A stretch of DNA of 64,000 nt. Source: Ilex aquifolium. Taxonomy: Eukaryota; Streptophyta; Magnoliopsida; Aquifoliales; Aquifoliaceae. The position numbers were made by a program, and so were the translations under genes. Positions 7,082-62,713 of the stretch are shown here, in pieces. The DNA is taken from NCBI GenBank assembly GCA_951799425.1, contig OX637394.1:27626001-27690000 (forward strand). Direction: 5' to 3'. The notes under the pieces were generated by a model. That model worked only from the letters and a program-made list of their open reading frames with translations, was not told the origin of the DNA and searched no databases. Positions within the stretch are counted from its first letter, which is position 1, and each line of letters starts with the position of its first letter.

Positions 7082-8788
7082 TGCTTGATGGTTTCTATTG
7101 TATTCCCTAATCTCCGGACATCATCCCTAAATATGTGTATGGCTTACCGGGATAGGGAGTCTCACTCTCCCTCGGAATGATGCAAGAAATGGGGAAACGG
7201 AATAATAGTGGGTGAATGGAAATGAAATGTGTGTGTGTGTGTGTGAAAAAAAGTGCTCCCCAAGCGCAGAGAGAATTTCGAGTGTCGTGTTTTACTTAGA
7301 AAAGTATTCCAAGGTCGTCTCCTCAGGGAAGGAGGTGAATCGTGTTGAAGGTGATTTTGGTAAAAAAGGGGAAAGTGTAAAAATCGTTTGATGTTTGAAG
7401 TTGGTTTGTGATTGTGTTCTTGGTGAAAATGAAATGGAACAAGTGTTGGCTAATCTGAAGGGGTCATTCCAATGGGAATGCCAAATCAACTCAAGGCTTT
7501 TCTCCAATGGTGCTTAAATGTTCGATTGATTCGTAGGAAGCGCGGGACCAAAATGGAGGTGAGGATTCAAGCATACCCCGTGACAATGCCTACGGTGTAT
7601 CAAGAACTCACAACCATGTCCACACTCAACTTAGTCAAACCGAGTCATCGTACACTATGAGGAGGAAAGAAGATGATTTGAAGTAGCATACCCAAAAGAA
7701 ATTTTCCCTTGGATTAGCCAACTATGAGCTTAGTTACTCATGTTTAAAGAAAGAACATAAATGACATGAAGAGACATTGTAAAGAAATAAATATTGAACT
7801 TGAAATTAATGCAAGGAAACATAAACTACAAGAAAGTGCATTTAATACCCATTTGAAGAGCTTTGAGATGAAAACTTGAATACATTAATGGTAAAAGCTA
7901 AGATACTCAACTAAACTTGAAATGCACTGGAAATAATTAATTTTAAAGACAATAAGGAAGCTTAAAAACATCTTACACGAGATTACAAGTGAAAAGGGAA
8001 GAAGAATGCAAGAAATCCAAGCTTTCTTTCTCTAACTATGTCTTTTACCTAGAACTCCTCTCTACAATGTAATACAAACTGAATAATACATAATGAATCC
8101 TGATTTTCATCCATTAAGAGCTCTCATAGGTGTGTGGCAGGCCTTACACCAAAAGGGGTCTGATTGGATGCATTGTTGCAGGCTATGACAAGTATAGCCT
8201 TCCTCTCTCTTGCCTTGCTTTTCTCTTTCCTCCTCATTAATGCTCAAGCCTTCAAAGTCCAAGTTAAGGTGAGGGGAGGCCTGTAGATGTGTAAGGGATG
8301 TCAGGGGACTTGTTGGAGAAGTGTAGGTGGGACCCCCAAATGGCAGAGCTTTTTTTGCAGGTTGTTTGGGCAATCTGGACAAAACCTTCTGGAAGGTCGA
8401 CACAAAAATTCCAAAAAGTTTGTGCAAGAATAGTTAAATTAGAAATCTAGTAGGCAAAACCTTCCAAAAGGTTCATTCCAGTAGACAAAACCTTCCGAAA
8501 GGTTTTGGCAGTGAACAAACAGACCAAGGCAAAACCTTCCGGAAGGTTTTTAGCCAAACCTTCCGGAAGGTTTTCATCCAAATTATTTTTTTCTTGGTTT
8601 CATCACCCTCCAAACCTTCCTTTAAGCTACCCCCTCATCTTCATTGACTTCAAACACTTCAATGGGGGCTTAACTCACACCATTTACATCATTTTACCTG
8701 CATTTACACAAAACTCTAACAAATAGAGGACTAAAAGCATTTCTCCCCAATTTCACAACAAAAGCAAGTATAAAAGGGCATATTAGCA
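7082..8788 (-). repeat. 5' LTR of A1
   Basis: The LTR begins TGCTTGATGG on the plus strand next to the primer-binding site and appears to end CATATTAGCA at 8788, giving TGCT/AGCA ends. Length is 1707 bp. No protein-coding frame is supported. A GT microsatellite lies near 7227-7244. A cluster of CCTTCCGGAAGG-type palindromes lies at 8384-8572, about 215-405 bp from the transcription-side end. I see no clear TATA box downstream of that cluster. The outer boundary is inferred from terminal symmetry and from the start of A3 Athila sequence just after it; no duplicate LTR is in view to confirm it. Confidence 0.65.
8384..8572. repeat. CCTTCCGGAAGG palindrome cluster in A1 LTR
   Basis: Five copies of an AAAACCTTCCGGAAGGTT-like word begin near 8384, 8460, 8491, 8535 and 8559. 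Two are perfect self-complementary 12-mers and the others differ by one or two bases. Spacing is irregular and spacer sequences differ, so this is not a simple tandem repeat. The core TTCnnGAA has the form of a heat-shock element pair. Confidence 0.8.
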
Positions 8789-13472: not shown

Positions 13473-14054
13473 TGTAACGCCCCAAAACCCACCCTGGACG
13501 GCATTACTATCCAAGACCATTCACAACATGAGAGTGACTAAATAAATTCCATAAATAAAGAAATTTCATTCATCATATATCATGTCCATAGCATTATCCC
13601 AAAAGAATAAGCCAAATCATGGCAATTACATCCCAAAAGAATTAAACGTAACTTAGCAGCGGAATAACAAAAGATTATATTTTACATGATCCCAAAATAA
13701 CCCTTCAATCTAATACAACGAAGGACCGTCGAGATATCCCCCTCCGGATCCCCCTACTCGTCTTCTAACTGATCCCTTTTTACAGCATCACCTGAAAAAT
13801 GTGTTGGTTTGTAGGGGGGGTGAGCACTAAGCTCTGTAGGAAAATCCTCCCAAACTCAAACAAGGTTTAGAAAACATGTAAAACAAGTCGGTCTCATTTC
13901 ACAAATATCATATATAACTTTTGAAGTAAAACTAGGACATTTAATAGATCTCAAGTTTAAGGAACAACAGTAATTAAATGAGTAAGTGAAACCACTATAC
14001 AGTTAGCAAACCATTTCCAAATATAATCCAGTCCACCATACACTGTTTCCAACA

Positions 14055-14640
14055 ATTCTTTCGGTAGGTGGCATACTTTATGGTAACCTCCACCCCCTTT
14101 TGGTCATCTTTGATTCTTTCGGTAGGTGGCATACTTTATGGTAACCTCCACCCCCCTTTAGGTCATCTCTGATTCTTTCGGTAGGTGGCATACTTTATGG
14201 TAACCTCCACCCCCCTTTTAGGTCATCTCTGATTCTTTCGATAGGTGGCATACTTTATGGTAACCTCCACCCCCCTTTAAATCATCTTTGTTTCTTTCGG
14301 TAGGTGACATACTTTATGGTAACCTCCACCCCCTTTTAGAACATATTTGTTTCTTTCGGTAGGTGGCATACTTTATGGTAACCTCCACCCCCTTTTGGTA
14401 ATCTTTGTTTCCCAAGCATCCTTACGAGGAACCTCTTGGGAAGGGGTGAGCATTCTTACAAGGAACCTCCCACCAATCTCTACATTGTTTCCCAATCATC
14501 CTTACAAGGAACCTCTTGGGAAGGGGTGAGCATCCTTACAAGGAACCTCCCACCAATCACTACATTGTTTCCCAAGCATCCTTACAAGGAACCTCTTGGG
14601 AAGGGGTGAGCATCCTTACAAGGAACCTCTTACTCATGTG
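14055..14640. repeat. Tandem repeats in the left LTR
   Basis: Six head-to-tail copies of a unit of 58-60 bp beginning TTCTTTCGGTAGGTGGCATA and containing AACCTCCACCCCC occupy about 14055-14404. They are followed by about three copies of an 80-bp unit containing CAAGGAACCTC and TTGGGAAGGGGTGAGCATCC. The right LTR has the same arrays at about 19632-20158 but only five copies of the first unit. Confidence 0.9.
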
Positions 14641-15506
14641 CATCACAAACAACCCAACCAAGCATACAATTCCAACATTTATCTCAATTTACAATCATCT
14701 ATCCAAAATCCCCCAAAATATAACCTGTAACAATTCCACAACCAACTAAGAAAAATACAAGAGATCACCATAAGTACCATTTTGTTGTTCAATATGAAAC
14801 ACTAAAGTTTTGAAATCAAGAACACATGAGTAATCAAACTTTGGAATCATTACAAATGAATATTAAGTTTGGAGTATAAGGAATAAAGGCGCACCAAGCT
14901 TGAAAATCATGGACAAAGGAGAAATTAAGATTTAACGGAACAATCATGTATGTAAATAAATAACAAACAACTATCAAGGTGTGAAATCAAGAACAAATGA
15001 TTATGAAGCTTAGAAATCAAGACCAAAAGAATATTCAAGTCTTGGAACCAAGAATAAAGAATATCAAGTATTGAATATCAAGCTAAGAATTCAAAACAAA
15101 GGGACAATCATGTATTGAAATCAATAACAAAGGAGAAGTCAAGAGAAAAAACACATTTCCCTTGAAGACTAGGGTTTCGTAGCAAGTAAGGAGATTTAAG
15201 GGTTACCCAACAATCACAATATTTTCCACATGGCATTAATTGCAAGAATAGCGAGAATTAAGGATTTGATAGCATACATGTAACATTTAGAGTGAAGAGA
15301 TACATATAAATAAACCTAGCCTCAATGTAAAAGAATGGAAGAAAACCCCTACCTTCTTCTTCCTTAGTGTTCTTGAAAAACTTGAAGTTTTGATCCTTTT
15401 CAATGTGTAAATCCTCCCTTGATCTTGTGTTTTCCCCTTCTTTCCTCCTCTCTAAGTCTTCTAGGGTTAGAAATGTTGAAATGATGCAAAGAGAGGAGTC
15501 CTTATG

Positions 15507-15698
15507 TATTTATAGGGTGAGAAATAGTCTTTTGTGCGCGATTTCTGAAACCCAGATTCGTCATTGGCGTTCGAACGGTTGTTGCTCCCAGTACTTCTGT
15601 TTTTCCATCAGACAAGAGTACTGGAACGCACTTTCGTTCGAACGTTTATTCACATTCGAACGTCGATTCACGTTCGAACGTCATTTCACGTTCGAACG
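15507..15698 (-). promoter_or_regulatory. Promoter with CGTTCGAACG cluster, left LTR
   Basis: The minus-strand TATA box is CCTATAAATACA (core 15507-15514). Upstream of it are five CGTTCGAACG-type palindromes between 15568 and 15698, four perfect and one with a single difference. Between the first and second palindromes lies CTCCCAGTACTT...AAGAGTACTGG, an inverted repeat. Homologous modules occur at 21087-21217 and, in a different element, at 61617-61915. Confidence 0.7.
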
Positions 15699-16201
15699 GA
15701 ATTCCTGTTTTTTTTGCTGAAACTTCCAGTGAAGTTTTGGCCTATTTAGAGATTGATTTGGAAATTTTTCGTGAAATACACTTTTGTAGCCCTAGATGTC
15801 TACTATCTACTGTCACAATTTCGGATCAATTGGACATCAGTATAAAAAGTTATGACTTAAATTCTAGAAGGTGTCCCAACTCTTTTTTACCCAAATTCTC
15901 TCTAAGTGTGTTTTTACTTCGGAATACTTTCTAGCTTCCAATACACTCTACATTACCTCTCCCAATATTTTTTGACCTTCCGGATTCAATGGAGAACTTA
16001 TTTTGACCTAAAAATATTTAGAAACTTCCATAATCCCTCTTCTCAAGTTTACACATTCGAAACTTAACTTCCCAATCAATTTGTATCTCTAGTTTTTGTT
16101 TTTGTTTTTATTCCTACCGTCACTCCACATATCCACATTTTTACAACAATTATTTACTATATATCTATATACATATATAAAAGAACATGCGGGGTGTTAC
16201 A

Positions 16202-19052
16202 ATCCACCCCCCTTAAAGAAAGTTTCGTCCTTGAAACTTAATCGTCGAGTTAGTCTCTCAAATTCTCAATCATTTGAGAGACTAGAATCAAAATACATTC
16301 CTTCACTAGAATTCATTTATCACCTCTATTCTTAATAATTGTATACGATTGTTCCAACTAATTTATTTTCATGCCTAACTACTAGATCATAATACTTAAT
16401 TGTGTATTCATCAAATATCACTTCTCTTTTGAATTTCACCAATCATTTCAATCAACCTCATATTTGCTTCTTACATGTAGCTTCTTCATAAGCATATCAA
16501 AATAACTCAAATGCAATTCCACCATTAGGATTACTCATCTTTCCTATACTAACATCATGGTGTAACACAAAATTTATTAATGGCATCACGGTAAGATTTA
16601 TCTCAATTCCTGAAAATAGATACAACGTTCTTCAGGATTTCGTCTCTCACAACCCAAGAGGGATTCACAATCTTTGAAATCTACCATAATTACAATTCAT
16701 AACTACACACTCCACACAAGTCAATGTTCTAAGATCAACTCTTAGATTTCACATCAATTTGTACTTTCTCATAATACTCCTTACTGTCACCATTATCGTC
16801 ATTAATCCAAGAGCTCGCTGCGCACTCTGATATAAATTATAATCCACCGATTCACAAGTGAAAATATGCTACAAGATAAGAATTTCGCATAGATTTGAAA
16901 GTTCTGAGAGAGTATCTTAGATTCCACCAAAGTATACAAGTGAAACCTAACCGCACTTGTTTTCCAATTATAGCTTCCAAAATGTGTACACTAACGATCC
17001 ATCAAATCCGTTCAAAAGGGAATTTTTGGTAATTAACCAGCTATAATACTTAAGCTAAGGATCAAGTTATATCTCCAAGATATTTGCTCTCGATCTACAA
17101 TCTTGAGCTAGAAATAATAACCATTTAATCAATTCTTAGTGGTTTTCATTCACATCACAACTCTTTTCATGATACCTATACTTTCGAATTCTTCTGATAC
17201 CATTCATTACCATATACCTCTTGTAACATATCAAAATGTGATGATAGACTGTCAAGGATCCCAAAACTAAAATAATCTAAACTAAAATAAGACTCTCGAT
17301 GATTCATCCCATGTCAAAGCAAATCTTCATAGGTATCATCCTTGATTCTTCAATTTGCTTCTTTACCATTATCACCATCAACCATAAGTTCGAATCTTCT
17401 ATACTCATACTAACATTCCTCAAGTATAACTAATCATTCCGATCTTAACAAGGTACTAAAAGAGACAAGAAGAAGAACGTCCTATTCACCCAACACAAAT
17501 CCAATAACATTAAAAGGTTTCCTAGAAATAGAAGTTCACCTCAAATTTGGGATATCATCTTCTTTTCAACAATTATTTTCTATTTTTGACCTCGAACTTT
17601 TAAGCCTCTATTATCTTTAATCCTAAGATATCTAGGGTCAAAGGTAACTACTGCAAGTTTGTCAAGCTTAATAGATTTCCAATCAAGTTTGTGAATACAA
17701 GTCAACTATTGATTCCACACTTAACTGAGAGGTTCTTGATGGTTAATGCCTTAGATACTCTAAATGTAGTCAACTAAGCCCACAACGAATTAAGATTACC
17801 TAAGTATAACATCCTCCATAAGCATCTTAGGTATGACTCTTCTAAATCATTTATACTTCCAAGTAAATTTAATCAACTCTCTATAATATTTTCAAAACAA
17901 TATGGGTAACCTCAAGTTTGTGGTTATGAAAACAAACTCCGATCCATTTAAGAACCATCATCACAATTTCTATCGTTAATCCAAAATAGGCTCTCTTTCG
18001 AGGTAACTTTTCCCTATTCCATCAATTGGTCATCTTTAAGAATTATTCAATCTCACCATTACCCTCTCAGGGTTTCTATTATAGAACCAAAACTACATTC
18101 ATTCCTTAATTTCTATGCCTTTTAAGTGACACACATAACCTTCCATACCCTTATCATTAGGAACTTAATTCATCTTAGAGAACCTCTAAGTTAACCTTAT
18201 CTCCACACATCCCAATTGGGTTATCATATCCTTTGACTTCTAAAATATGAGCAATACTATTAGTGGAAGAGAATACTTAAAGTTGACAAGCACCAAATCA
18301 TAATCACCTTTTATATTGTTATCCATCAAAAGCACTTCAATCAATATAGGGGTGTCTCTCAATCAAAGCCTAAATAATGTGAAAGTTCACCTAAGGATAG
18401 GTCCTTCAGAATCTAAGAAGAAGGTACAACACTTTACTGTCCAAAGAACACCACAGTGCAGATTTTTGACCAACTTCGAAGAATAAACTGATTTGACTCG
18501 AGTATTTTGAGCATGCGTGACCTATATGGTTGGAAATATATACGAGTTAGGGTTCTAACAAAAATAACGGTGCACAATTTGGACTTTCCAATGAAGAGTT
18601 GTGAACAAATTGGTGCGAGGTAGTCTGCCGGACTGTTTGGTTCCTTTATACTTGTCTAACTCAAGTTTGGGTGTCTTTGTCACACATCCTATCTCATACC
18701 TATCTCCAATATAAATAATATGACCCGAAATCAAGATCCATGCCTAATCTCATTTACAAACCAAAAGCCAAATTATCATCCGTTTCCAAGACTAGACCCA
18801 AAACGACATGATATAAAACTATGATATCCATCAAAAAAATTTCGTCAACTCCTCAACGCTAGATAATCCATGAATTCGAACAAATAATTAATCCCTAACC
18901 TAACTAAACAACAAATCACACTTATCTTCTAAACATATAACTTCAAACAAATCAAAACTTAAAGTTTCTTCATCCTAAACTAATACTCCAGTGATAGTCC
19001 ACAACCTACAGCTCCCATGTAAGACCTAAAGTCTAAGCTCTGATACCAACTT
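16202..19052 (-). other. Internal region of the non-autonomous element, non-coding
   Basis: I find no gag or pol motif on either strand in these 2.85 kb. Only the edges are conserved. Near 16204-16240, minus strand, are a polypurine tract (AAGGGGGGTGGAT) and a near-perfect hairpin (AAGTTTCA/CGAAACTT). Near 18990-19052 a leader resembles that of TK2 (AACCTACAGCTCCCATGTAA in both). The middle is AT-rich, apparently unique sequence. This matches the LARD class, in which the coding part is replaced by long non-coding DNA. Confidence 0.75.
19037..19048 (-). promoter_or_regulatory. Primer-binding site, initiator tRNA-Met type
   Basis: The minus strand reads TGGTATCAGAGC, complementary to the 3' end of initiator tRNA-Met, four bases from the right LTR at 19053. 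Tekay and many other plant LTR elements use this primer. Confidence 0.9.
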
Positions 19053-21720
19053 TGTAACGCCCCAAAACCCATCCTGGACGGCATTACTATCCAAGACCAT
19101 TCACAACATGAGAGCGACTAAATAAATTCCATAAATAAAGAAATTTCATTCATCATATATCATGTCCATAGCATTATCCCAAAAGAATAAGCCAAATCAT
19201 GGCAATTACATCCCAAAAGAATTAAACGTAACTTAGCAGCGGAATAACAAAAGATTATATTTTACATGATCCCAAAATAACCCTTCAATCTAATACAACG
19301 AAGGACCGTCGAGATATCCCCCTCCGGATCCCCCTACTCGTCTTCTAACTGATCCCTTTTTACAGCATCACCTGAAAAATGTGTTGGTTTGTAGGGGGTG
19401 AGCACTAAACTCTGTAGGAAAATCCTCCCAAACTCAAACAAGGTTTAGAAAACATGTAAAACAAGTCGGTCTCATTTCACAAATATCATATATAACTTTT
19501 GAAGTAAAACCAGGATATTTAATAGATCTCAAGTTTAAGGAACAACAGTAATTGAATGAGTAAGTGAAACCACTATACAGTTAGCAAACCATTTCCAAAT
19601 ATAATCCAGTCCACCATACACTGTTTCCAACAATTCTTTCGGTAGGTGGCATACTTTATGGTAACCTCCACCCCCTTTAGGTCATCTCTGATTCTTTCGG
19701 TAGGTGGCATACTTTATGGTAACCTCCACCCCCCTTTAGGTCATCTCTGATTCTTTCGGTAGGTGGCATACTTTATGGTAACCTCCACCCCCCTTTAAAT
19801 CATCTTTGTTTCTTTCGGTAGGTGGCATACTTTATGGTAACCTCCACCCCCTTTTAGAACATCTTTGTTTCTTTCGGTAGGTGGCATACTTTATGGTAAC
19901 CTCCACCCCCTTTTGGTCATCTTTGTTTCCCAAGCATCCGTACGAGGAACCTCTTGGGAAGGGGTGAGCATCCTTACAAGGAACCTCCCACCAATCTCTA
20001 CATTGTTTCCCAATCATCCTTACAAGGAACCTTTTGGGAAGGGGTGAGCATCCTTACAAGGAACCTCCCACCAATCACTACATTGTTTCCCAAGCATCCT
20101 TACAAGGAACCTCTTGGGAAGGGGTGAGCATCCTTACAAGGAACCTCTCACTCATGTGCATCACAAACAACCCAACCAAGCATACAATTCCAACATTTAT
20201 CTCAATTTACAATCATCTATCCAAAATCCCCCAAAATATAACCTGTAACAATTCCACAACCAACTAAGAAAAATACAAGAGATCACCATAAGTACCATTT
20301 TGTTGTTCAATATGAAACACTAAAGTTTTGAAATCAAGAACACATGAGTAATCAAACTTTGGAATCATTACAAATGAATATTAAGTTTGGAGTATAAGGA
20401 ATAAATGCGCACCAAGCTTGAAAATCATGGACAAAGGAGAAATTAAGATTTAACGGAACAATCATGTATGAAAATAAATAACAAACGACTATCAAGGTGT
20501 GAAATCAAGAACAAATGATTATGAAGCTTAGAAATCAAGACCAAAAGAATATTCAAGTCTTGGAACCAAGAATAAAGAATATCAAGTATTGAATATCAAG
20601 CTTAGAATTCAAAACAAAGGGACAATCATGTATTGAAATCAATAACAAAGGAGAAGTCAAGAGAAAAAACACATTTCCCTTGAAGACTAGGGTTTGGTAG
20701 CAAGTAAGGAGATTTAAGGGTTACCCAACAATCACAATATTTTTCACATGGCATTAATTGCAAGAATAGCGAGAATTAAGGATTTGATAGCATACATGTA
20801 ACATTTAGAGTGAAGAGATACATATAAATAAACCTAGCCTCAATGTAAAAGAATGGAAGAAAACCCCTACCTTCTTCTTCCTTAGTGTTCTTGAAAAACT
20901 TGAAGTTTTGATCCTCTTCAATGTGTAAATCCTCCCTTGATCTTGTGTTTTCCCCTTCTTTCCTCCTCTCTAAGTCTTCCTAGGGTTAGAAATGTTGAAA
21001 TGTTGCAAAGAGAGGAGTCCTTATGTATTTATAGGGTGAGAAATAGTCTCTTGTGCGCGATTTCTGAAACCCAGATTCGTCATTGGCGTTCGAACGGTTG
21101 TTGCTCCCAGTACTTCTATTTTTCCATCAGACAAGAGTACTGGAACACACTTTCGTTCGAACGTTTATTCACGTTCGAACGTCGATTCACGTTCGAACGT
21201 CATTTCACGTTCGAACGGAATTCCTATTTTTTTTGCTGAAACTTCTTGTGATGTTTTGGCCTATTTAGAGATTGATTTGGAAATTGTTCGTGAAATACAC
21301 TTTTGTAGCCCTAGATGTCTACTATCTACTGTCAAAATTTTGGATCAATTGGAAATCAGTATAAAAAGTGATGACTTAAATTCTAGAAGGTGTCCCAACT
21401 CCTTTTTACCCAAATTCTCTCTAAGTGTGTTTTTACTCCGGAATACTTCCTAGCTTCCAATACACTCCACATTACCTCTCCCAATGTTTTTCGACCTTCC
21501 GGATTCAATGGAGAACTTATTTTTACCTAACAATATTTAGAAACTTCCATAATCCCTTTTCTCAAGTTTACACATTCGAAACTTAACTTCCCAATCAATT
21601 TGTATCTCTAGTTTTTGTTTTTGTTTTTATTCCTACCGTCACTCCACATATCCACATTTTTACAAAAATTATTTACTATATATTTATATACATATATAAA
21701 AGAAAATGCGGGGTGTTACA
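19053..21720 (-). repeat. Right (5') LTR of the non-autonomous element
   Basis: Length 2668 bp, about one tandem unit shorter than the left LTR. TATA box at 21026-21033 (minus strand) and five CGTTCGAACG copies at 21087-21217, all perfect here. It ends at the CTTTA target-site duplication. Confidence 0.9.
21087..21217. repeat. CGTTCGAACG cluster, right LTR
   Basis: Five perfect CGTTCGAACG decamers with spacers of differing length, about 55-190 bp upstream of the minus-strand TATA box. The last three are about 20 bp apart, the others more widely spaced. Confidence 0.85.
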
Positions 21721-40991: not shown

Positions 40992-43242
40992 TGTAAAACC
41001 CGGGAAATTTGGACTTTTTCCTAAAAGGGCAAAATAGTATTTTGCCACTATAATGCGTATTTAAAATACTCATATTTTAGACCTCGGATGAGGAAACGGA
41101 GTTCGCTGTTGAATTCGTATCGCGAAAACGAGTCACCTTGTCAAATTTCGTCGAATTCCGAGATAGTCAGATTTTTGCACGTAGATCGAGACGACTGCGT
41201 GGCGATTGACCTTTTAAAGGTCCCCAAAAACGAGAAATATTAAAATTCCTTATAATTGAATTAATGTGCCAATAAAATTTATTTGGACTTAATCCGGCAC
41301 TTAATGAGTCGTTTCGGGACGAAAAACGGACCCGAAAGTAATAAACGAGCGGTGCGATGTAGACCACACATTTAAAACTATAAATAGGGCTAAAATATCT
41401 GAAAACTCAGATTTTCTAAGCCACTTGAGTCTTGTTTGGCTGGCCAAGAGAAAGAGAAGAGAGAAAACCTTGATCTTCAAGCTTTCTCCGTCGATTCCCG
41501 GAGTTCCGTCGCTCGGATTCCGTCGAACCAAGAGCTAAAGTCGATCACATCGACGAGGGCTACGCAACCACACCAAGAGCACGAGATTTCACCGAAGATC
41601 CAAGAGAGGAGATTTGGGGGAAATCTAGACTTGGGCTTGGAAAGTGTTCTTGAAGCTTCCTTCGGGTGAATTACGCTTCAAGAGGTAGGGTTTCTCCTAC
41701 TTGGGACTATTTTTCACCTATGGTGTCATGTGGGCGGGTAGGTGTGTATAGAACTATAGGGTTTACTTACCTATGGTTATGGAAAGGGAGGTAAAAATGG
41801 TTGAATTCAAGTTCTAGTTTGAACTCGATATATAGAGGTTCCTTGTGTCATTCTTGGAAGTTTGGCATATAGTGATATGCTATGTATTTATATGATGGTC
41901 ATTCTTGGAAGTTTGGCATATAGTAATATGCTATGTGTTTATATGATGAGGTGCTAGTTGTGTACATTGAGCCTTGTCATAGGAATGAAATGATTATGTA
42001 ATAACATGATGGTTGCCTTGAAGGTGTTGTTAAATACCTTTTGTATGTTAAAGTGTGTGACACATGACTATGTATAGCATGCTTAAGTCTTGTGTTGATT
42101 GGATATGTTGCTAATGTGTTAGCTTCATGGGAATATGGTATTTATATGCTTTGATATGATTTGCCATGGATATATATATTGAGCATTATGTTGTATGCAA
42201 TGGAACATGACATTGCATATGCATCTCATTACATGGGTGTGTGTGCATGGTTGATGTCAATACCACACTTGGGGATTGACAGTATGGCTTGGGAAAAGTT
42301 GGGTCGAAGACCTAGCTAAGCCGCTTGATTGCATGATAAATTGGGTCGGGATGAGCAAGAAGAGGCATGACGACCTCTCGGGTGAAAGACCCGGTGTTTG
42401 GGGGGTGCACTCCGTTGGTATAAGAGCCCATAAAGTGTACGGGTGTGGAAGACCATTGGTTAAGTCCATAAAGAAGTCCGATCCCAAGAAAGACCCTAGT
42501 TTTCAAAATATCATTTGATGTAAACATAAATGATGAAATGAAACGCTTTGGCATTGCATCGTGTTGAATGAGTCGGTGAGAACTCGGGTTAAAATGCATG
42601 AGTGAGTGACATCTCATTTCATGGCATGGTATGTTGCATTCCAACTTAGAATGCATGTCCTTTTGATAAATGAATGTTGCATGAGCATGAGCATCTAGGG
42701 GGAGAGTAGCCCTGGTAGGGTTTACTTTATTGGGCGTTGGCTCACCCTATACGGGAAACATTTCAGGTATGGGGTTTACACCGGCGGATGGCTCACTTGG
42801 AGAGCATCAAGAATGAAGGGGGCCGGCATGTGGCCTTAGTGCGAGTTTTTGTAAAACTTTTGTATAAATTCCATTTTTATGTGTAAATTATGGAATTAAA
42901 TGTAATGGAACTTGTATAAGTTGTGTATTATATGAAAAATCGTATTATACATGTGTTGGATGAGTTAGGAATGTATTAGAATGGATTGGAAGTGAAAAAC
43001 AAAGGAAAAAGGCAAAACTGGCAAAATCGTACCGGTACGCGTACCGGTACGTAGACAGACAGAAGACAGAGCGTACCGGTACGCCGATGTCCAGTGGGTT
43101 CAGCGTACCGGTACGCGTACCGGTACGCCCTCCAAAACTCAGAATTTTTTTTTATTTTTTATTTTTGTTTTCTTTGCCAAGCCTTTGGGCTATGTTTTTC
43201 CTTCCCTCCAATGATCAAATTGGACCCTAATGGGGTATGAAT
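40992..43242 (+). repeat. TK1 5' LTR, part before TK2
   Basis: Starts TGTAAAACCCGGGAAATTTG. TATA box at 41379-41386 (ACTATAAATAGGG). A direct duplication of about 60 bp (TCATTCTTGGAAGTTTGGCA) lies at about 41855-41950. A CGTACCGGTACG cluster lies at 43028-43127. The part ends with TGAAT (43238-43242), one copy of the TK2 target-site duplication. No coding frame is supported. Confidence 0.9.
43028..43127. repeat. CGTACCGGTACG cluster in the TK1 LTR
   Basis: Five perfect self-complementary 12-mers at 43028, 43040, 43072, 43104 and 43116, arranged as two adjacent pairs around a single central copy. The 3' LTR has the same five at 60116-60215. The cluster lies about 1.65 kb downstream of the TATA box, unlike the clusters in the other LTRs. 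Confidence 0.9.
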
Positions 43243-45617
43243 TGTAACACCCCAAAATACACCTTGGAAGCATTACTAGCTAATCACCATTCACATCATG
43301 AGAGCACTAAATAAATCCATAAACAATAAAGTTCCCTCCATCAATCATTGATATTTAACAAAATTCGGGCAAAGTCTCCTTTGTACGGGGAGCTCTACCC
43401 AAAACTCAACCTGTGCAATTATACTATAATTGACCACACCGAGTCCCCAGATGCATCATAACATAAACTTTCATTCAACATATATTGCATCCACACTATC
43501 ATCCCAAAAGAAAAGGCCAAACAATGGCATTTACATTCCCAAAAGTATTTAAACCATAATACGCAGCGGAATTTACAAAAGATAACTAGACTACACACAG
43601 TTTCAAAAGAATAGTCTAGTCTAGACAAAAGTAGGCATCAGCTCTAAATATCCCACGCGGGATCCAAGTATCCCTCTAGGGAAACCTCTCCATGGCCTGG
43701 CTCACTAGCACCGAGCTCATCCTCAGGCAAAAGATCTGAAAAAGTTTAGCAGTAGGGGGTGAGCACGAAGCTCTGTAGGAAAAATCCTTCCAAACCCAAA
43801 CAAGGTTTAGAAAAGTGTATAAAACGGCCGGTCTTGTTTCGCAATTAACATATATAACATTTGAAGTAAAACAGTGACATTTAACCATGATCTCAAGTTT
43901 AAATAGCAAGAATAAATTGAAGGGATGAATAACCACAATACACCATTTCAAATCCATTCTACCATTAATCATTTCAACAAGTTCTCCAAGGAATCCCATA
44001 CTTCCCGAGAATCTTATCGAAATCATTTCTGGTACAATACAAGATGATCCACACGATATGTCCGTCACAACACACGTTACTAATCCGTTACCATTAGTGA
44101 TAGGAAAAGTTCGTATCCACACGGCGAACAAAGGCGTCTACCCACTCTAAGTGGTAGGAAAAGTTCATACCCGTGTGGCATCCGAAGACGTCCACCAGCT
44201 ACATGATACCCGGCCAATAGTAAACCATGTTTGTATCGTACAATCACACAAGAGATAAAATATCAACCAATAGTCCCCATAATCAAAAATAACATAAAAC
44301 CCCCAATTTCCTTTCAAGCAATTTCCATAAAATCCACAACTTTCGCAAGTGATATTTCCCATAAAACATATTTAAGAAAAAGTACATGAGATCATCACAA
44401 GTATCATTTTATTGTTCATTACAAATCGCTAGAGTTTTGAAGTCAAGAACAAATGAATAATCAAGCTTTGGAACTCAAGAACAAAGGACAAATCAAGTCT
44501 TGAATCCCTAACAACAAATATCAAGCTTGAAATCAAGAATAAAGGGTAAATCAAGTCTTGAATCCATAACAATAAATATCAAGCTTGGAATCAAGAATAT
44601 AGGAACAATTAAGTATTGAAATCGACAACAAATGAATATCAAGATTGAAATCAATAACCAAGGATAAATCAAGAGAAAACCAACTTCCCTTGAAGAACTA
44701 GGGCATACAAGAGTTTTAGTGATTACCCAACCATCACATAGTTTAATACAAGGTAATAATTGCAAGAATAACAAGAAATGATGAATTCATAGCAAGTATA
44801 TATGATTGAGAGTCAAGAGAATGCATATATATAGTAGCCCTAATCTCAATGTAAGAGAATGGAAGAAATCCCCTACCTCTTCCTTAGTTTGGTGTGAAGA
44901 CTTGATGATTTGATTTACTTTGAGGTGAGAATCCCCTTCCTTCTTCCTCCCCCAAAGCTCTCTAGGGTTAGAAATGGGGAAAATGGGTGAAGGAGGCGGG
45001 TTTGGTGTATTTAGAAGGCCAGAATTGGGGAAAATCGCGAACTGATCTGGGTATATATAACTGGTACCGTCCGGACTGTGCCTTGGGCGTCCGGACGCTG
45101 GCAACTCTCTGTCCCAGTTTTCTGTCCCAACTTCCAGAGCAGTTTTCACCTATTTAGAGGTCGAATTGGAGAATTTTCATGAGATACAATTTTGTAGCCC
45201 TAGATGTCTACTATCTACTGTAAAAATTTCAGATCAATTGGACTTAATAATAAAAAGTTATAGCCAAAATAATAAGAAGTGTCCAAAATTCTAAATTCCT
45301 AAATTTTCTCTAAAATGTGTTTTAACTCCAAAATACTTTCTAACTTCTAATACACCTCATATTACCTCTCCCAAGGTTTTTCGACCTTCCGGACTCAATG
45401 GAAACCTTATTTTGACCTAAAAATATTTAGAGGCTTATCTAACAACCCTTCTCCAAGTTTAAACATCTTCGACACGTAACTTCCCAATCAAATTGTCTCC
45501 ATAGTATTTATTCCTACGGTTTATTCTTATGTCACTACATATATCTACATCTTTACAAATATTATTTACTATATATATATCTCTATAAATATATAAAAGA
45601 AAATTCGGGGTGTTACA
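43243..45617 (-). repeat. TK2 left (3') LTR
   Basis: TGTAACACCCC...GGGTGTTACA, 2375 bp. The promoter side (high-coordinate end) has a TATA-like TCTAAATACA near 45007-45014, aligned with the TATA box of the non-autonomous LTR, and a TTATATATAC at about 45052-45060. GTCCGGAC palindromes lie at 45069-45076 and 45087-45098. Short frames here, such as the 151-codon one at 43676-44131, have no family resemblance and are repeated only because the LTR is duplicated. Confidence 0.95.
45069..45098. repeat. CGTCCGGAC palindromes in the TK2 LTR
   Basis: CCGTCCGGACTG and GCGTCCGGACGC lie 10 bp apart, upstream of the TATA region on the minus strand. The right LTR has the same pair at 52194-52223. They occupy the place filled by CGTTCGAACG in the related non-autonomous LTR. 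Confidence 0.8.
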
Positions 45618-50351: not shown

Positions 50352-50363
50352 GCTCTGATACCA
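50352..50363 (-). promoter_or_regulatory. Primer-binding site of TK2
   Basis: The minus strand reads TGGTATCAGAGC, the complement of the initiator tRNA-Met 3' end, four bases from the LTR at 50368. Confidence 0.95.
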
Positions 50364-50367
50364 ACTT

Positions 50368-52742
50368 TGTAACACCCCAAAATACACCTTGGAAGCATTA
50401 CTAGCTAATCACCATTCACATCATGAGAGCACTAAATAAATCCATAAACAATAAAGTTCCCTCCATCAATCATTGATATTTAACAAAATTCGGGCAAAGT
50501 CTCCTTTGTACGGGGAGCTCTACCCAAAACTCAACCTGTGCAATTATACTATAATTGACCACACCGAGTCCCCAGATGCATCATAACATAAACTTTCATT
50601 CAACATATATTGCATCCACACTATCATCCCAAAAGAAAAGGCCAAACAATGGCATTTACATTCCCAAAAGTATTTAAACCATAATACGCAGCGGAATTTA
50701 CAAAAGATAACTAGACTACACACAGTTTCAAAAGAATAGTCTAGTCTAGACAAAAGTAGGCATCAGCTCTAAATATCCCACGCGGGATCCAAGTATCCCT
50801 CTAGGGAAACCTCTCCATGGCCTGGCTCACTAGCACCGAGCTCATCCTCAGGCAAAAGATCTGAAAAAGTTTAGCAGTAGGGGGTGAGCACGAAGCTCTG
50901 TAGGAAAAATCCTTCCAAACCCAAACAAGGTTTAGAAAAGTGTATAAAACGGCCGGTCTTGTTTCGCAATTAACATATATAACATTTGAAGTAAAACAGT
51001 GACATTTAACCATGATCTCAAGTTTAAATAGCAAGAATAAATTGAAGGGATGAATAACCACAATACACCATTTCAAATCCATTCTACCATTAATCATTTC
51101 AACAAGTTCTCCAAGGAATCCCATACTTCCCGAGAATCTTATCGAAATCATTTCTGGTACAATACAAGATGATCCACACGATATGTCCGTCACAACACAC
51201 GTTACTAATCCGTTACCATTAGTGATAGGAAAAGTTCGTATCCACACGGCGAACAAAGGCGTCTACCCACTCTAAGTGGTAGGAAAAGTTCATACCCGTG
51301 TGGCATCCGAAGACGTCCACCAGCTACATGATACCCGGCCAATAGTAAACCATGTTTGTATCGTACAATCACACAAGAGATAAAATATCAACCAATAGTC
51401 CCCATAATCAAAAATAACATAAAACCCCCAATTTCCTTTCAAGCAATTTCCATAAAATCCACAACTTTCGCAAGTGATATTTTCCATAAAACATATTTAA
51501 GAAAAAGTACATGAGATCATCACAAGTATCATTTTATTGTTCATTACAAATCGCTAGAGTTTTGAAGTCAAGAACAAATGAATAATCAAGCTTTGGAACT
51601 CAAGAACAAAGGACAAATCAAGTCTTGAATCCCTAACAACAAATATCAAGCTTGAAATCAAGAATAAAGGGTAAATCAAGTCTTGAATCCATAACAATAA
51701 ATATCAAGCTTGGAATCAAGAATATAGGAACAATTAAGTATTGAAATCGACAACAAATGAATATCAAGATTGAAATCAATAACCAAGGATAAATCAAGAG
51801 AAAACCAACTTCCCTTGAAGAACTAGGGCATACAAGAGTTTTAGTGATTACCCAACCATCACATAGTTTAATACAAGGTAATAATTGCAAGAATAACAAG
51901 AAATGATGAATTCATAGCAAGTATATATGATTGAGAGTCAAGAGAATGCATATATATAGTAGCCCTAATCTCAATGTAAGAGAATGGAAGAAATCCCCTA
52001 CCTCTTCCTTAGTTTGGTGTGAAGACTTGATGATTTGATTTACTTTGAGGTGAGAATCCCCTTCCTTCTTCCTCCCCCAAAGCTCTCTAGGGTTAGAAAT
52101 GGGGAAAATGGGTGAAGGAGGCGGGTTTGGTGTATTTAGAAGGCCAGAATTGGGGAAAATCGCGAACTGATCTGGGTATATATAACTGGTACCGTCCGGA
52201 CTGTGCCTTGGGCGTCCGGACGCTGGCAACTCTCTGTCCCAGTTTTCTGTCCCAACTTCCAGAGCAGTTTTCACCTATTTAGAGGTCGAATTGGAGAATT
52301 TTCATGAGATACAATTTTGTAGCCCTAGATGTCTACTATCTACTGTAAAAATTTCAGATCAATTGGACTTAATAATAAAAAGTTATAGCCAAAATACTAA
52401 GAAGTGTCCAAAATTCTAAATTCCTAAATTTTCTCTAAAATGTGTTTTAACTCCAAAATACTTTCTAACTTCTAATACACCTCATATTACCTCTCCCAAG
52501 GTTTTTCGACCTTCCGGACTCAATGGAAACCTTATTTTGACCTAAAAATATTTAGAGGCTTATCTAACAACCCTTCTCCAAGTTTAAACATCTTCGACAC
52601 GTAACTTCCCAATCAAATTGTCTCCATAGTATTTATTCCTACGGTTTATTCTTATGTCACTACATATATCTACATCTTTACAAATATTATTTACTATATA
52701 TATATCTCTATAAATATATAAAAGAAAATTCGGGGTGTTACA
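50368..52742 (-). repeat. TK2 right (5') LTR
   Basis: 2375 bp, the same length as the left copy and almost identical to it. It is bounded by the primer site on the left and the TGAAT target-site duplication on the right. Palindromes at 52194-52223. Confidence 0.95.
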
Positions 52743-52929
52743 TGAATCATGGGGAGTTGGACTGGGGTTGGATCGAATGAATGTTGAACCGAATTTTCAT
52801 TGTGGATTATAACATCGGTGTAAGGATGTTATTGATGTGGTGTCAGGTTAAGCGACATCCACGGGTATTTCCGCGGGTTGATGGGTTGTCAACGGTTAAT
52901 ACAAGACCCCCGGAAAATGGGGTGTCACA
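52743..52929 (+). repeat. TK1 5' LTR, part after TK2
   Basis: Begins with the second TGAAT copy and continues ATGGGGAGTTGG, as in the TK1 3' LTR near 60325, then ends GGGGTGTCACA at 52929 beside the primer site. Confidence 0.9.
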
Positions 52930-57984: not shown

Positions 57985-58041
57985 TCATTTACCATTACAT
58001 GACTGTAGCATGTGCATGAGACTGCATGTATGTGTGTGTGT

Positions 58042-58079
58042 GAATTTCGGGGACGAAATTCTTTTTAAGGGGGGAAGAA
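58042..58079 (+). promoter_or_regulatory. TK1 hairpin and polypurine tract
   Basis: A perfect 8-bp stem (GAATTTCG, loop GGGA, CGAAATTC; 58042-58061) is followed by TTTTTAAGGGGGGAAGAA and the 3' LTR at 58080. The same arrangement occurs in the spare tail at 40954-40991. Confidence 0.8.
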
Positions 58080-60472
58080 TGTAAAACCCGGGAAATTTGG
58101 ACTTTTTCCTAAAAGGGCAAAATAGTAATTTGCCACTATAATGCGTATTTAAAATACTCATGTTTTAGACCTCGGATGAGGAAACAAAGTTCGCTGTTGA
58201 ATTCGTATCGCGAAAACGAGTCACCTTGTCAAATTTCGTCGAATTCCGAGATAATCGAATTTTTGCACGTAGATCGAGACGACTGCGTGGCGATTGACCT
58301 TTTAAAGGTCCCCAAAAACGAGAAATATTAAAATTCCTTATAATTGGATTAATGTGCCAATAAAATTTATTTGGACTTAATCCGACACTTAATGAGTCGT
58401 TTCGGGACGAAAAACGGACCCAAAAGTAATAAACGAGCGGTGCGATGTAGACCACACATTTAAAACTATAAATAGGGCTAAAATATCTGAAAAATCAGAT
58501 TTTCTAAGCCACTTGAGTCTTGTTTGGCCGGCCAAGAGAGAGAGAAGAGAGAAAACCTTGATCTTCAAGCTTTCTCCGTCGATTCCCGGAGTTCCGTCGC
58601 TCGGATTCCGTCGAACCAAGAGCTAAAGTCGATCACATCGACGAGGGCTACGCAACCACACCAAGAGCACGGGATTTCACCGAAGATCCAAGAGAGGAGA
58701 TTTGGGGGAAATCTAGACTTGGGCTTGGAAAGTGTTCTTGAAGCTTCCTTCGAGTGAATTACGCTTCAAGAGGTAGGGTTTCTCCTACTTGGGACTATTT
58801 TTCACCTATGGTGTCATGTGGGCGGGTAGGTGTGTATAGAACTATAGGGTTTACTTACCTATGGTTATGGAAATGGAGGTAAAAATGGTTGAATTCAAGT
58901 TCTAGTTTGAACTCGATATATAGAGGTTCCTTGTGTCATTCTTGGAAGTTTGGCATATAGTGATATGCTATGTATTTATATGATGGTCATTCTTGGAAGT
59001 TTGGCATATAGTAATATGCTATGTGTTTATATGATGAGGTGCTAGTTGTGTACATTGAGTCTTGTCATAGGAATGAAATGATTATGTGATAACATGATGG
59101 TTGCCTTGAAGGTGTTGTTAAATACCTTTTGTATGTTAAAGTGTGTGACACATGACTATGTATAGCATGCTTAAGTCTTGTGTTGATTGGATATGTTGCT
59201 AATGTGTTAGCTTCATGGGAATATGGTATTTATATGCTTTGATATGATTTGCCATGGATATATATATTGAGCATTATGTTGTATGCAATGGAACATGGCA
59301 TTGCATATGCATCTCATTACATGGGTGTGTGTGCATGGTTGATGTCAATACCACACTTGGGGATTGACAGTATGGCTTGGGAAAAGTTGGGTCGAAGACC
59401 TAGCTAAGCCGCTTGATTGCATGATAAATTGGGTCGGGATGAGCAAGAAGAGGCATGACGACCTCTCGGGTGAAAGACCCGGTGTTTGGGGGGTGCACTC
59501 CGTTGGTATAAGAGCCCATAAAGTGTACGGGTGTGGAAGACCATTGGTTAAGTCCATAAAGAAGTCCGATCCCAAGAAAGACCCTAGTTTTCAAAATATC
59601 ATTTGATGTAAACATAAATGATGAAATGAAACGCTTTGGCATTGCATCGTGTTGAATGAGTCGGTGAGAACTCGGGTTAAAATGCATGAGTGAGTGACAT
59701 CTCATTTCATGGCATGGTATGTTGCATTCCAACTTAGAATGCATGTCCTTTTGATAAATGAATGTTGCATGAGCATGAGCATCTAGGGGGAGAGTAGCCC
59801 TGGTAGGGTTTACTTTACTGGGCGTTGGCTCACCCTATACGGGAAACATTTCAGGTATGGGGTTTACACCGGCGGATGGCTCACTTGGAGAGCATCAAGA
59901 ATGAAGGGGGCCGGCATGTGGCCTTAGTGCGAGTTTTTGTAAAACTTTTGTATAAATTCCATTTTTATGTGTAAATTATGGAATTAAATGTAATGGAACT
60001 TGTATAAGTTGTGTATTATATGAAAAATCGTATTATACATGTGTTGGATGAGTTAGGAATGTATTAGAATGGATTGGAAGTGAAAAACAAAGGAAAAAGG
60101 CAAAACTGGCAAAATCGTACCGGTACGCGTACCGGTACGTAGACAGACAGAAGACAGAGCGTACCGGTACGCCGATGTCCAGTGGGTTCAGCGTACCGGT
60201 ACGCGTACCGGTACGCCCTCCAAAACTCAGAATTTTTTTTTTATTTTTGTTTTCTTTGCCAAGCCTTTGGGCTATGTTTTTCCTTCCCTCCAATGATCAA
60301 ATTGGACCCTAATGGGGTATGAATCATGGGGAGTTGGACTGGGGTTGGATCGAATGAATGTTGAACCGAATTTTCATTGTGGATTATAACATCGGTTTAA
60401 GGATGTTATTGATGTGGTGTCGGGTTAAGCGACATCCACGGGTATTTCCGCGGGTTGATGGGTTGTCAACGG
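58080..60472 (+). repeat. TK1 3' LTR
   Basis: Starts TGTAAAACCCGGG, with a TATA box at 58467-58474 and the CGTACCGGTACG cluster at 60116-60215. It matches 40992-43242 plus 52748-52929 up to GGGTTGTCAACGGT, where the next element begins. The uninterrupted sequence near 60317-60325 shows the empty site of TK2. Confidence 0.9.
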
Positions 60473-61377
60473 TCAAGCTCCTCTTGTACCTCATCCACTC
60501 CGTGGGCCGGGGGCTCTTCTTGCCTTGCCGCTGGGCCGCCACTATGACTTTGGCTTCTCCGGAAGGAAGCCTTGTTCAGTGGCCCCATTGGCTTTTGGAT
60601 TTCCATCTCGGGCTTCACCCTTACCCCATGTTCCGTGCACATTTCAGTCACCAAAGTAGCAAAAGGGAGTGCACTCCTCTTTACATCACACCCTTTCTTC
60701 ATTTCATTCAGGATGAGAGAGGGGAGGTCGATGCTATGTACTTTTCCAATGGCATACAAAAGTCGGGCCATGTCAGGTAAAATCTCATTCTTTCTTCCTA
60801 CGGGAGCGAAGTTGGACACCGCAATCAAATTCATCATTTTATATTTGTCGGTGAGCTCCCCTTGCCTAAAAAATCTCCTCCCTGCCCATGAAAAGTCAGC
60901 TACCCCCGTCAATTCCTTTCCCACCACATTCATTGCTATGTCCTTCTTTGGGGGGTAGGTAGGGTTTTGCACTCGAGGTATTTCAATGATGTATGCTTCA
61001 TCCACGTCAATGTGGGTACCCCTAACATATGTACGGATTGCGCCGTTGATGATCTCAATGTTGGAGTAAAACTCCCGCACCAAGTCAACAACGGCGTCTC
61101 CACCATTCCTCAAATACCAGACCCACTCCCTCCTCTCCATTTCTTGCCTTATTCCAATCCCAGCAAAGTCATCAATTACAACATCTCTCTCACAAACAAT
61201 TGCATGCTTATGGTAAAAATTTTCATACCTTTCAGCCTTTAAGGCATTGGGAAACCTGGTCCTGTCATATCTCTTTGTCCTTTGCCTTCCTTCCCTTTCT
61301 TCTATCACCTCTTCTACAATGTTTGGATCTTGGTTCATTGGTGGAGCACGCCTGGCAGGGAGTTTCATCCTTGGCAT
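60473..61377 (-). pseudogene. Putative plant transposon protein ORF, partial
   Basis: A minus-strand frame starts at ATG 61375-61377 and runs about 300 codons to the TK1 junction; the last few codons before the stop lie in TK1 LTR sequence, so the natural C-terminus is not seen. Segments such as FPNALKAERYENFYHKHAIV, VVDLVREFYSNIE and YVRGTHIDVDEAYI resemble the domain annotated in plants as 'putative plant transposon protein', found in extra ORFs of LTR elements. Its molecular role is unknown. The N-terminus is basic and Pro-rich (MPRMKLPARRAPP). The frame is otherwise open, so it is not very old. Confidence 0.6.
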
Positions 61378-61595
61378 GGCGTTCGAACGTGGGTTTTGGT
61401 TTGAGAGGGTGCTGAAAAGTGCTGGAAACTTAGGGTTCTTGGTCTGGGATTGATGATTTTGATGTGGAGAGGAGTTAGGGAGGGTCGAATTTGGGTATTC
61501 TTGGGGAATGAGGGCGAGTTGAGGTCTGTGGAGTGAAAATGAGTTCTAGGGTTTTGAAAGAATTTGGGGATTTTGGCTGAAAACAACGAACCAGG

Positions 61596-61604
61596 CTTTT
61601 ATAG
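61596..61604 (-). promoter_or_regulatory. TATA box of the antisense ORF
   Basis: The minus strand reads GGCTATAAAAGCC, about 220 bp upstream of the ORF start codon, with the CGTTCGAACG cluster immediately upstream. It suggests that the ORF has its own promoter rather than depending on the LTR. Confidence 0.6.
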
Positions 61605-61616
61605 CCTGAGTTGTAT

Positions 61617-61915
61617 CGTTCGAACGTTGGTGACGTTCGAACGTTGGTAGAAGAATTTTAAACAGACCGTTCGAACGTGGTATGGTGTTCGAACGTGGTG
61701 AGCTCCCAGTACTTTTGTGTTCTGTCAGAGGCCAAAGTACTGTAAGTTCTCTTCGTTCGAACGTTCTATTGGCGTTCGAACGTTAATCTAGTTCGAACGG
61801 TCTATTGGCGTTCGAACGGACTGAGCTCCCAGTACTTTTAAGTTCCAGCAGAAGCTTCATCAGAGGCTGAGTACTGTAAGCAATCAACGTTCGAACGTTA
61901 CCTGGCGTTCGAACG
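61617..61915. repeat. CGTTCGAACG cluster upstream of the antisense ORF
   Basis: Ten copies, eight perfect CGTTCGAACG and two with one changed outer base, lie in about 300 bp. An eleventh lies at 61380-61389, two bases before the start codon. Two CTCCCAGTACTT...AGTACTG inverted repeats (61702-61745 and 61824-61880) are interspersed. The arrangement matches the non-autonomous Tekay LTR promoter at 15568-15698. Confidence 0.9.
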
Positions 61916-61940
61916 TTGAACCAAAATTAAAGTTTTAAAA

Positions 61941-62709
61941 TGTCATAATAACATGTCAATTTTAAGTACTAATCAGTTTTTCAATTACATTATGAACTAA
62001 ATCTTTATTAAGATTGCAACGGAACCTAATGTCTAGTTAAATTGATCTACTCTCGTTTCTAGTTTTTGTTGATCTTATATGATTTGTTTGTCATATTTTG
62101 TGTTTAATATATGATTGTTTGGCCAACAATTAATTTGATAACTTAGATGAAATTGAGAGATGAATTCTAGGTTTAGATCTGAATATGATGACATGCGTCT
62201 GGTTAATTCTTCTTAGGATTGAATTGGTGGGTTTTTGTATAGGATAGGAATATACCTATATGCCGTGTGTAACTTTTATGAGAGTTTGAACTTAATGAAT
62301 CTATTCCAACTTATTTTGCATAGGAATATAGCAATTTAATTGGGAGAGATATGCTTATCTAACTATCGGAAGAGGTTTGATAAATAATTTTGAAGTCTCA
62401 GTTAACAACTTATTTTGATCAATTAAATGGAAAGAGAGTGGAGAGATTTATACGAAACATTAGGGGAAGTTGTAATCTTAACTTCTTCTATCCATTAAAT
62501 TCAATCTTTGATTATTAAATTTAGGTTTAGTTTTAAATTAGTAAATTCATAGTTTAATTCTTATTGTTTAAATAAAATCGAATTGATATAAAGTTAGTAC
62601 TTGAAAATTATTAGCAATAATTCTCCGTGGGAACGATACTCTACTTATCACTTTATTACTTGTTGATCGTGTATACTTGCACGTAAATTTTCATTACTAA
62701 ATTCGGACA
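61941..62709 (+). repeat. Probable LTR, plus orientation
   Basis: Candidate limits TGTCATAATAAC...TTCGGACA (TGTC/GACA ends, 769 bp). The right end is supported by Athila gag resuming within five bases. The left end is chosen by terminal symmetry only, and no G-rich polypurine tract precedes it. AT-rich, no coding frame. Confidence 0.4.
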
Positions 62710-62713
62710 ACAA

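What the first reader, a model, noticed from the sequence alone, without database searches (positions are those of the whole stretch)
61617..61915. A promoter module of about 70 bp shared by two different elements
In the non-autonomous Tekay LTRs (15568-15652 and 21087-21171) and in the promoter of the antisense ORF at 61702-61770, the same composite appears in the same order: CGTTCGAACG-type palindrome, GCTCCCAGTACTT, a short T-rich spacer with TCAGA, AGTACTG, then TTCGTTCGAACGTT. The flanking DNA is unrelated, and one copy drives an LTR, the other a separate ORF. Both lie upstream of a TATA box on the minus strand. A second, looser copy is at 61824-61890. Seen directly; horizontal sharing of a regulatory module between families is inference.
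Basis: partly seen in the sequence, partly recalled or inferred. Interest (0 to 1): 0.78.

Follow-up and report, generated by a model that had tools for sequence, protein, structure and literature searches.

The report
Promoter cassette shared by two retroelements
In a stretch of plant DNA packed with jumping genes, two different mobile elements carry the same control segment of repeated mirror-image sites just upstream of their start signals, which suggests that such segments can pass between elements as one piece.

Summary
A composite of CGTTCGAACG palindromes around an inverted AGTACT pair occurs four times in the window: once in each LTR of a non-autonomous element (15565-15700, 21084-21219) and twice, as a tandem duplication, before a minus-strand ORF (61664-61925). 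Order, orientation and position upstream of a TATA box agree. The likeness exceeds chance even with palindromes and AGTACT held fixed (0 of 2000 shuffles). Near flanks do not match, so simple descent from one LTR is not supported; one whole-flank comparison was marginal (35 of 1000). The ORF (60466-61377) is a Transposase_32 (PF20167) accessory gene, cut at its C-end, beside what looks like a + strand LTR tail. New here: two other LTRs in the window carry their own palindrome arrays (one a presumed LTR), and the autonomous relative of the first element has a different palindrome pair (CGTCCGGACG) in the same slot. The closest published kind is the Sirevirus repeated motif, which lies upstream of both the LTR TATA box and the ENV gene. 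This looks like a Ty3/gypsy counterpart, shared across families. Promoter activity, bound factor, host and transfer route could not be tested.

The parts
13473..21720 (-). non-autonomous LTR element (LTRs 13473-16201 and 19053-21720), carrier of modules 1 and 2
   Evidence: LTR pair 97.9% over 14113-16201 v 19633-21720 and 93% over 13473-14553 v 19053-20151; target duplication CTTTA; internal 16202-19052 shows no tblastn match to the two intact polyproteins of the window better than E 0.78
15565..15700 (-). module 1 in LTR 13473-16201: 5 palindromes (4 perfect) around the AGTACT pair 15588-15624
21084..21219 (-). module 2 in LTR 19053-21720: 5 perfect palindromes around the AGTACT pair 21107-21143
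15508..15514 (-). TATA box (TATAAAT) downstream of module 1
21027..21033 (-). TATA box (TATAAAT) downstream of module 2
61786..61925 (-). unit A of the ORF promoter (the finding's looser copy)
   Evidence: alignment to LTR2 score 93, 0 of 2000 shuffles
61664..61788 (-). unit B of the ORF promoter (the finding's main copy), tandem duplicate of unit A
   Evidence: alignment to LTR2 score 100, 0 of 2000 shuffles; 72% to unit A
61617..61643 (-). two palindromes, 17 bp apart, next to the TATA box
61597..61603 (-). TATA box (TATAAAA) of the ORF promoter
61380..61389 (.). single CGTTCGAACG beside the ATG of the ORF
60466..61377 (-). 303-aa ORF, Transposase_32 (PF20167); C-end cut by the junction with the neighbouring LTR
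   Evidence: Pfam E 1.3e-21; relatives P0004 and P0005 run on past this point
61926..62712 (+). AT-rich tract ending in a presumed LTR tail (62627-62712), + orientation
   Evidence: same layout as the stretch before a PBS at 24387-24480(-) (by eye); weak match to 11316-11211, 65%, E 0.001
45068..45097 (.). palindrome pair CGTCCGGACt...CGTCCGGACG in the equivalent slot of the autonomous relative, first LTR
   Evidence: slot alignment
52193..52222 (.). the same pair in its second LTR
43028..43127 (.). array of 5 GTACCGGTAC and 2 GTACGCGTAC in an LTR of the outer element
60116..60215 (.). the same array in the other LTR of the outer element
8385..8570 (.). array of 5 CCTTCCGGAAGG-like palindromes (0-2 mismatches) in the presumed LTR of the left, Athila-like element

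Best explanation
The module is an upstream promoter cassette of LTR retrotransposons. It consists of 10-bp CpG-bearing palindromes, commonly 17-19 bp apart, which look like sites for a dimeric DNA-binding protein, placed on either side of an inverted AGTACT pair and upstream of a TATA box. One ancestral cassette, not a whole LTR, is present in two contexts: the U3 region of a non-autonomous Ty3/gypsy element and the promoter of a PF20167 accessory gene, where it later duplicated in tandem. Shown here: the composite, its common order and orientation, likeness beyond the palindromes, unlike near flanks, TATA boxes, and a different palindrome pair in the same slot of the autonomous relative. Inferred: that the sites bind a factor and drive transcription, and that the cassette moved by template switching in reverse transcription or by recombination between nested copies.
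For: Common order and orientation relative to TATA. Score beyond 0 of 2000 shuffles with the motifs fixed. The spans across the AGTACT pair are alike: 67 bp in both LTRs, 68 and 79 bp in the promoter. Near flanks at chance level. Homology between autonomous and non-autonomous LTRs stops on either side of the slot: 14961-15394 v 44509-44914, 72%, and 15721-16240 v 45129-45656, 81%. CpG observed/expected is 2.10 and 2.25 in the LTR modules and 1.71 in the promoter, against 0.57 in the window. Precedents: Sirevirus motifs upstream of TATA and upstream of ENV (PMC2829016, passages and section 9); Grande gene23 transcribed from its own upstream promoter (PMC7264820, parts 1-2 of 3); template switching between plant LTR elements (PMC1950507, abstract).
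Against: Only two independent contexts, since the two LTR copies are one insertion event. No expression, TSS, methylation or binding data. Nearest palindrome to TATA distance differs: 58.5 bp in the LTRs, 18.5 bp in the promoter. The downstream whole-flank comparison was marginal, 35 of 1000, so a short, decayed further homology is not fully excluded. No TATA of the patterns tried was found downstream of the array in the outer LTR, and only TATACT in the presumed left LTR.
Confidence: 0.6

Rival explanations
1. Convergence: each promoter gathered sites for the same host factor on its own, and the likeness is that of similar site arrays.
For: Palindromes are orientation-neutral and arrays grow by slippage; other LTRs in the window have their own arrays.
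Against: With palindromes and AGTACT fixed, the other bases still align beyond 0 of 2000 shuffles. Long shared words such as AGTACTGGGAGC and CCGTTCGAACGCCAAT lie at matching places in LTR2 and unit A.
Confidence: 0.12
2. Simple descent: the ORF promoter is a decayed piece of the same LTR family as the non-autonomous element.
For: One of four flank comparisons was marginal (35 of 1000); 77% identity over the module shows that it is old enough for flanks to decay.
Against: BLASTN at E 1e-5 stops at the module; the other three flank comparisons are at chance level, whereas the two LTR families keep 72-81% on both sides of the slot.
Confidence: 0.12
3. The arrays matter as RNA or as targets of silencing: palindromes in U3 fold and feed small RNAs, as said of maize Sireviruses, and are kept by repeat dynamics, not promoter function.
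For: All six strands folded are more stable than shuffles (z -4.0 to -8.2); palindrome-rich LTR regions as small-RNA hotspots are stated in PMC5311732 (passages), citing Bousios 2016, which was not held.
Against: Any dense array of perfect palindromes folds like this; the constant place upstream of TATA and the CpG excess suit DNA-level use. No small-RNA data here.
Confidence: 0.12

Closest known systems
Palindromic repeated motifs (RMs) of Sirevirus (Ty1/copia) LTRs, PMC2829016 (passages and section 9 seen)
   Same: Many copies of an element-specific palindrome upstream of the LTR TATA box, CpG-rich, with further copies upstream of an accessory gene (ENV).
   Different: Here in Ty3/gypsy-type elements; no CGG-CCG core; fewer copies per LTR; a composite with an AGTACT pair; the LTR and the accessory gene that share it belong to different elements.
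Antisense accessory genes of plant LTR elements with their own promoter (Grande gene23, Retand TRP28 ORFs), PMC7264820 (parts 1-2 of 3) and PMC11963269 (abstract, section 11 part 1, discussion)
   Same: An extra ORF next to an LTR, opposite to the presumed LTR orientation, with its own promoter-like region.
   Different: Domain is PF20167, not TRP28 (PF04195); place in a complete element cannot be seen here.
Athila 14 3' accessory ORF of sunflower with Transposase_32 (PMC11728184, passages)
   Same: Same Pfam domain, PF20167, in an LTR-element accessory ORF.
   Different: Given as ORF(+) there; here the ORF runs against the presumed LTR tail. No promoter module was seen in the passages shown.
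VANC target motifs of VANDAL DNA transposons (PMC5735166, PMC10398659, passages)
   Same: Short family-specific motifs in repeats in non-coding parts of an element; one unrelated element, AT9TSD1, is reported to respond to VANC6.
   Different: DNA transposons; no DUF1985 match in the ORF here at E up to 10; no binding data.
LTR swapping between autonomous and non-autonomous soybean elements (recalled; only a listing of papers using the term was seen)
   Same: Exchange of promoter-bearing parts between elements.
   Different: There whole LTRs are exchanged, as I recall it; here only a cassette of about 140 bp.

Membership tests
Sirevirus repeated motif | perfect or near-perfect dyad symmetry | tested here: met
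   18 perfect CGTTCGAACG
Sirevirus repeated motif | lies upstream of a TATA box in the LTR | tested here: met
   TATA at 15508-15514 and 21027-21033, 58.5 bp from the nearest palindrome centre
Sirevirus repeated motif | CpG-rich cluster | tested here: met
   CpG observed/expected 2.10 and 2.25 v 0.57 for the window; no CpG-island program was run
Sirevirus repeated motif | CGG-CCG core (12 of 13 motifs in print) | tested here: not met
   CGTTCGAACG lacks it; motif table in section 9
Sirevirus repeated motif | at least 8 copies per element, counted in linker and 3' LTR | tested here: not met
   5 per LTR in the non-autonomous element; the ORF element is incomplete
Sirevirus repeated motif | carrier is a Ty1/copia Sirevirus | tested here: not met
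   LTRs are homologous to those of an element with Ty3/gypsy-type polyprotein domains
Tekay (chromovirus) | LTR homology to an intact element of the clade | tested here: inconclusive
   72-81% to LTRs of the intact element 43243-52742, whose clade was not tested by a tree; no chromodomain among its Pfam matches at E 0.001
Antisense accessory ORF between pol and 3' LTR | ORF opposite to gag-pol, between pol and the 3' LTR | tested here: inconclusive
   ORF on minus, presumed LTR tail on plus; no pol of the same element in view
PF20167 Transposase_32 | score above Pfam's curated cut-off | tested here: met
   77.7 bits v cut-off 45
VANC anti-silencing system | VANC-type protein (DUF1985) | tested here: not met
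   only PF20167 found at E up to 10
VANC anti-silencing system | loss of methylation on motif-bearing copies | not testable with these tools
   no methylation data

The most novel reading that the evidence does not exclude
Each LTR family in this genome carries its own palindrome 'address', read by its own trans-acting factor. The PF20167 protein, or a partner encoded by its element, reads CGTTCGAACG arrays, drives its own gene through them and shields it from silencing. The non-autonomous element gained the cassette and so answers to a foreign element's regulator, as AT9TSD1 is reported to answer to VANC6.
Probability: 0.1. Interest if true: 0.85.

Novelty: new variant of a known kind. Interest (0 to 1): 0.5.

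Why it matters
If the cassette moves as a unit, LTR promoters are modular: an element can change its regulation without changing its identity, and a non-autonomous element can put itself under the control of another family. It also extends palindromic promoter arrays, described in print for Sireviruses, to Ty3/gypsy-type elements and to the promoter of a PF20167 gene, which makes the question of what binds them directly testable. My one search for gypsy LTR palindrome arrays returned only the Sirevirus paper, and the letters CGTTCGAACG gave 62 papers of which I saw 20 titles, none on LTRs; that is thin ground for a claim of first report.

Tried and rejected
DNA relatives elsewhere: three scans of viral contigs and one of genome contigs found nothing; neither collection is expected to hold plant DNA. 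The window's own genome could not be searched (see below).

Protein relatives: 4 at E 0.001 among 1038 candidates and 14 among 7995 scored candidates (capped) with the alignment, 12 of these bearing PF20167; the contigs that hold them could not be read, so their promoters remain unseen. Two structure predictions of the ORF product were too poor to use (mean pLDDT 36.4 and 40.2); no fold search was made.

A clean insertion of the outer element at 40746/60476 was considered and dropped: the 'LTR' match at 40746 starts inside the end of pol, no target duplication of 5 bases or more was found near these ends, and the right LTR stops about 31 bases short of the end seen in the other copy. I therefore read the ORF's cut C-end as a rearrangement junction.

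Known plant sites (heat shock, MSA, CCAAT) were weighed from memory only; no one of them explains all copies. The palindrome scan lists 14 motif classes with two or more copies within 300 bp. By their coordinates, those at 11830-12063, 14499-14613 with 19971-20131, and 44493-44551 with 51618-51676 lie in or near ordinary tandem repeats seen, and I do not count them as promoter arrays. The scan did not list CGTCCGGACG, which has one perfect and one near-perfect copy per LTR and was found by eye and by count.

Full report
What was claimed.

Is it there? Yes. CGTTCGAACG occurs 18 times in 64 kb against 0.007 expected under a first-order Markov model, all in three places: 15568-15698 (4), 21087-21217 (5) and 61380-61915 (9). 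CTCCCAGTACT occurs at 15585, 21104, 61703 and 61826, and the inverted AGTACT pair is found only at these four places (none in 100 shuffles). Counting single-mismatch forms there are 5, 5 and 11 palindromes. Neighbouring centres are 17-19 bp apart in 3 of 4, 3 of 4 and 6 of 9 intervals (the last leaving out the 237-bp step to the one beside the ATG), and the span over the AGTACT pair is 67, 67, 68 and 79 bp.

Is it one thing or similar site arrays? On the minus strand, which is the direction of the TATA boxes, LTR2 aligns with unit A (61786-61925) and unit B (61664-61788) in the same order: palindromes, CAGTACT, a spacer, AGTACTGGGAGC, palindrome. I held palindromes and AGTACT in place and shuffled the rest of each unit. 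None of 2000 shuffles reached the observed score for LTR2 v A (93, best 88), LTR2 v B (100, best 89) or A v B (119, best 99). The shuffles keep base content only, and I set the unit borders after seeing the repeats. A and B are more like each other than either is to the LTR, so the promoter pair is best read as a tandem duplication.

Does the homology run on? BLASTN at E 1e-5 stops at the module. Flank scores were reached by 422 of 1000 shuffles (downstream near), 599 of 1000 (upstream near), 410 of 1000 (whole upstream flank) and 35 of 1000 (whole downstream flank). The last is marginal and counts somewhat against me. Still, the non-autonomous LTRs keep 72% and 81% identity to the autonomous element's LTRs on the two sides of the slot, so LTR descent as such is easy to see in this window, and the ORF promoter does not show it.

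What are the two carriers? The first is an 8.2-kb element, 13473-21720, with two LTRs, a CTTTA target duplication and no detectable gag-pol (tblastn best E 0.78). Its relative at 43243-52742 is intact, with LTRs 99.9% identical, a 1521-aa polyprotein with gag, protease, RT, RNase H and integrase domains and a TGAAT duplication. The second carrier is the ORF at 60466-61377, Transposase_32 (PF20167, E 1.3e-21). Its C-end is cut where it meets the neighbouring LTR, since relatives P0004 and P0005 run on. To its right, past the array, an AT-rich tract ends at 62712 in what looks like a + strand LTR tail. Its layout resembles the stretch just before a primer-binding site at 24387-24480 on the minus strand (by eye), and it weakly matches 11316-11211 (65%, E 0.001). 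From 62713 on lies a gag-region fragment 91% identical at its start to the left element's (89% over the whole match). If this reading is right, the ORF runs against its element, like the antisense accessory ORFs of Grande and Retand. The one paper found naming PF20167 gives it for a 3' accessory ORF, ORF(+), of a sunflower Athila element. The array may then lie between two divergent units; the only TATAAA or TATATA on the plus strand between 61915 and 62712 is at 62587, so a rightward promoter is not shown.

The wider pattern. A scan for short palindromes repeated within 300 bp also found GTACCGGTAC, 5 copies (plus 2 GTACGCGTAC) in each LTR of the outer element, and CCTTCCGGAAGG in the presumed LTR of the left, Athila-like element, 5 copies with 0-2 mismatches. 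Of 20 Markov controls, 17 had no such cluster and 3 had one of two copies. The autonomous relative has a pair, CGTCCGGACt and CGTCCGGACG, in the slot where the non-autonomous LTR has its module. So the slot is evidently prone to replacement, and different families carry different palindromes with a CG centre. A TATA of the patterns tried lies downstream of the autonomous pair (TATATA at 45059, TCTAAATA at 45015); for the left element only TATACT at 8196 was found, and for the outer element none. The position 'upstream of TATA' is therefore shown for the CGTTCGAACG carriers, fits the autonomous relative, and is open for the other two.

How it probably works. Dense palindromes at near-constant spacing, CpG excess (2.10, 2.25 and 1.71 against 0.57) and position upstream of TATA suit sites for a dimeric factor in a pol II promoter. 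That is inference. Strong RNA folding (z -4.0 to -8.2) follows from palindromes as such, and leaves room for a small-RNA role as stated for maize Sireviruses. Movement by template switching (PMC1950507, abstract) or by recombination during bursts (PMC5668417, abstract; shown there within one family only) is possible and untested.

What is known. Sirevirus LTRs carry element-specific palindromes upstream of TATA and again upstream of the ENV gene (PMC2829016, passages and section 9), which is the same anatomy. The authors call the motif Sirevirus-specific against other Ty1/copia elements. Here the carriers are Ty3/gypsy-type, the CGG-CCG core is absent, copies are fewer, and the LTR and the accessory gene that share the cassette belong to different elements. 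I call this a new variant of a known kind.

Limits. The sharing rests on two independent contexts. Function is not shown.

Noticed in passing
8385-8570: Five CCTTCCGGAAGG-like palindromes (0-2 mismatches) in the presumed LTR of the left, Athila-like element, another palindrome array of its own kind.
   Followed up: partly
43028-43127 and 60116-60215: Each LTR of the outer element bears 5 GTACCGGTAC and 2 GTACGCGTAC within 100 bp.
   Followed up: partly
40746-60476: The outer element is not a clean insertion: its left copy begins inside the end of pol, its right LTR lacks about 31 terminal bases, and it is fused to the 3' end of the PF20167 ORF.
   Followed up: partly
43243-52742: Nested intact LTR element with LTRs 99.9% identical, an intact 1521-aa polyprotein and TGAAT target duplication: a very young insertion.
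   Followed up: no
14034-14633 and 19612-20151: Tandem repeats of 59-60 and 80 bp inside the LTRs of the non-autonomous element, differing in copy arrangement between its two LTRs.
   Followed up: no
62008-62088 and 62404-62481: Inverted repeat (72%) within the AT-rich tract beside the presumed LTR tail.
   Followed up: no
39394-40089: A gag-like reading frame on the plus strand just left of the outer element, in pieces; from another LTR element by its look, no Pfam match for 39616-40089.
   Followed up: no
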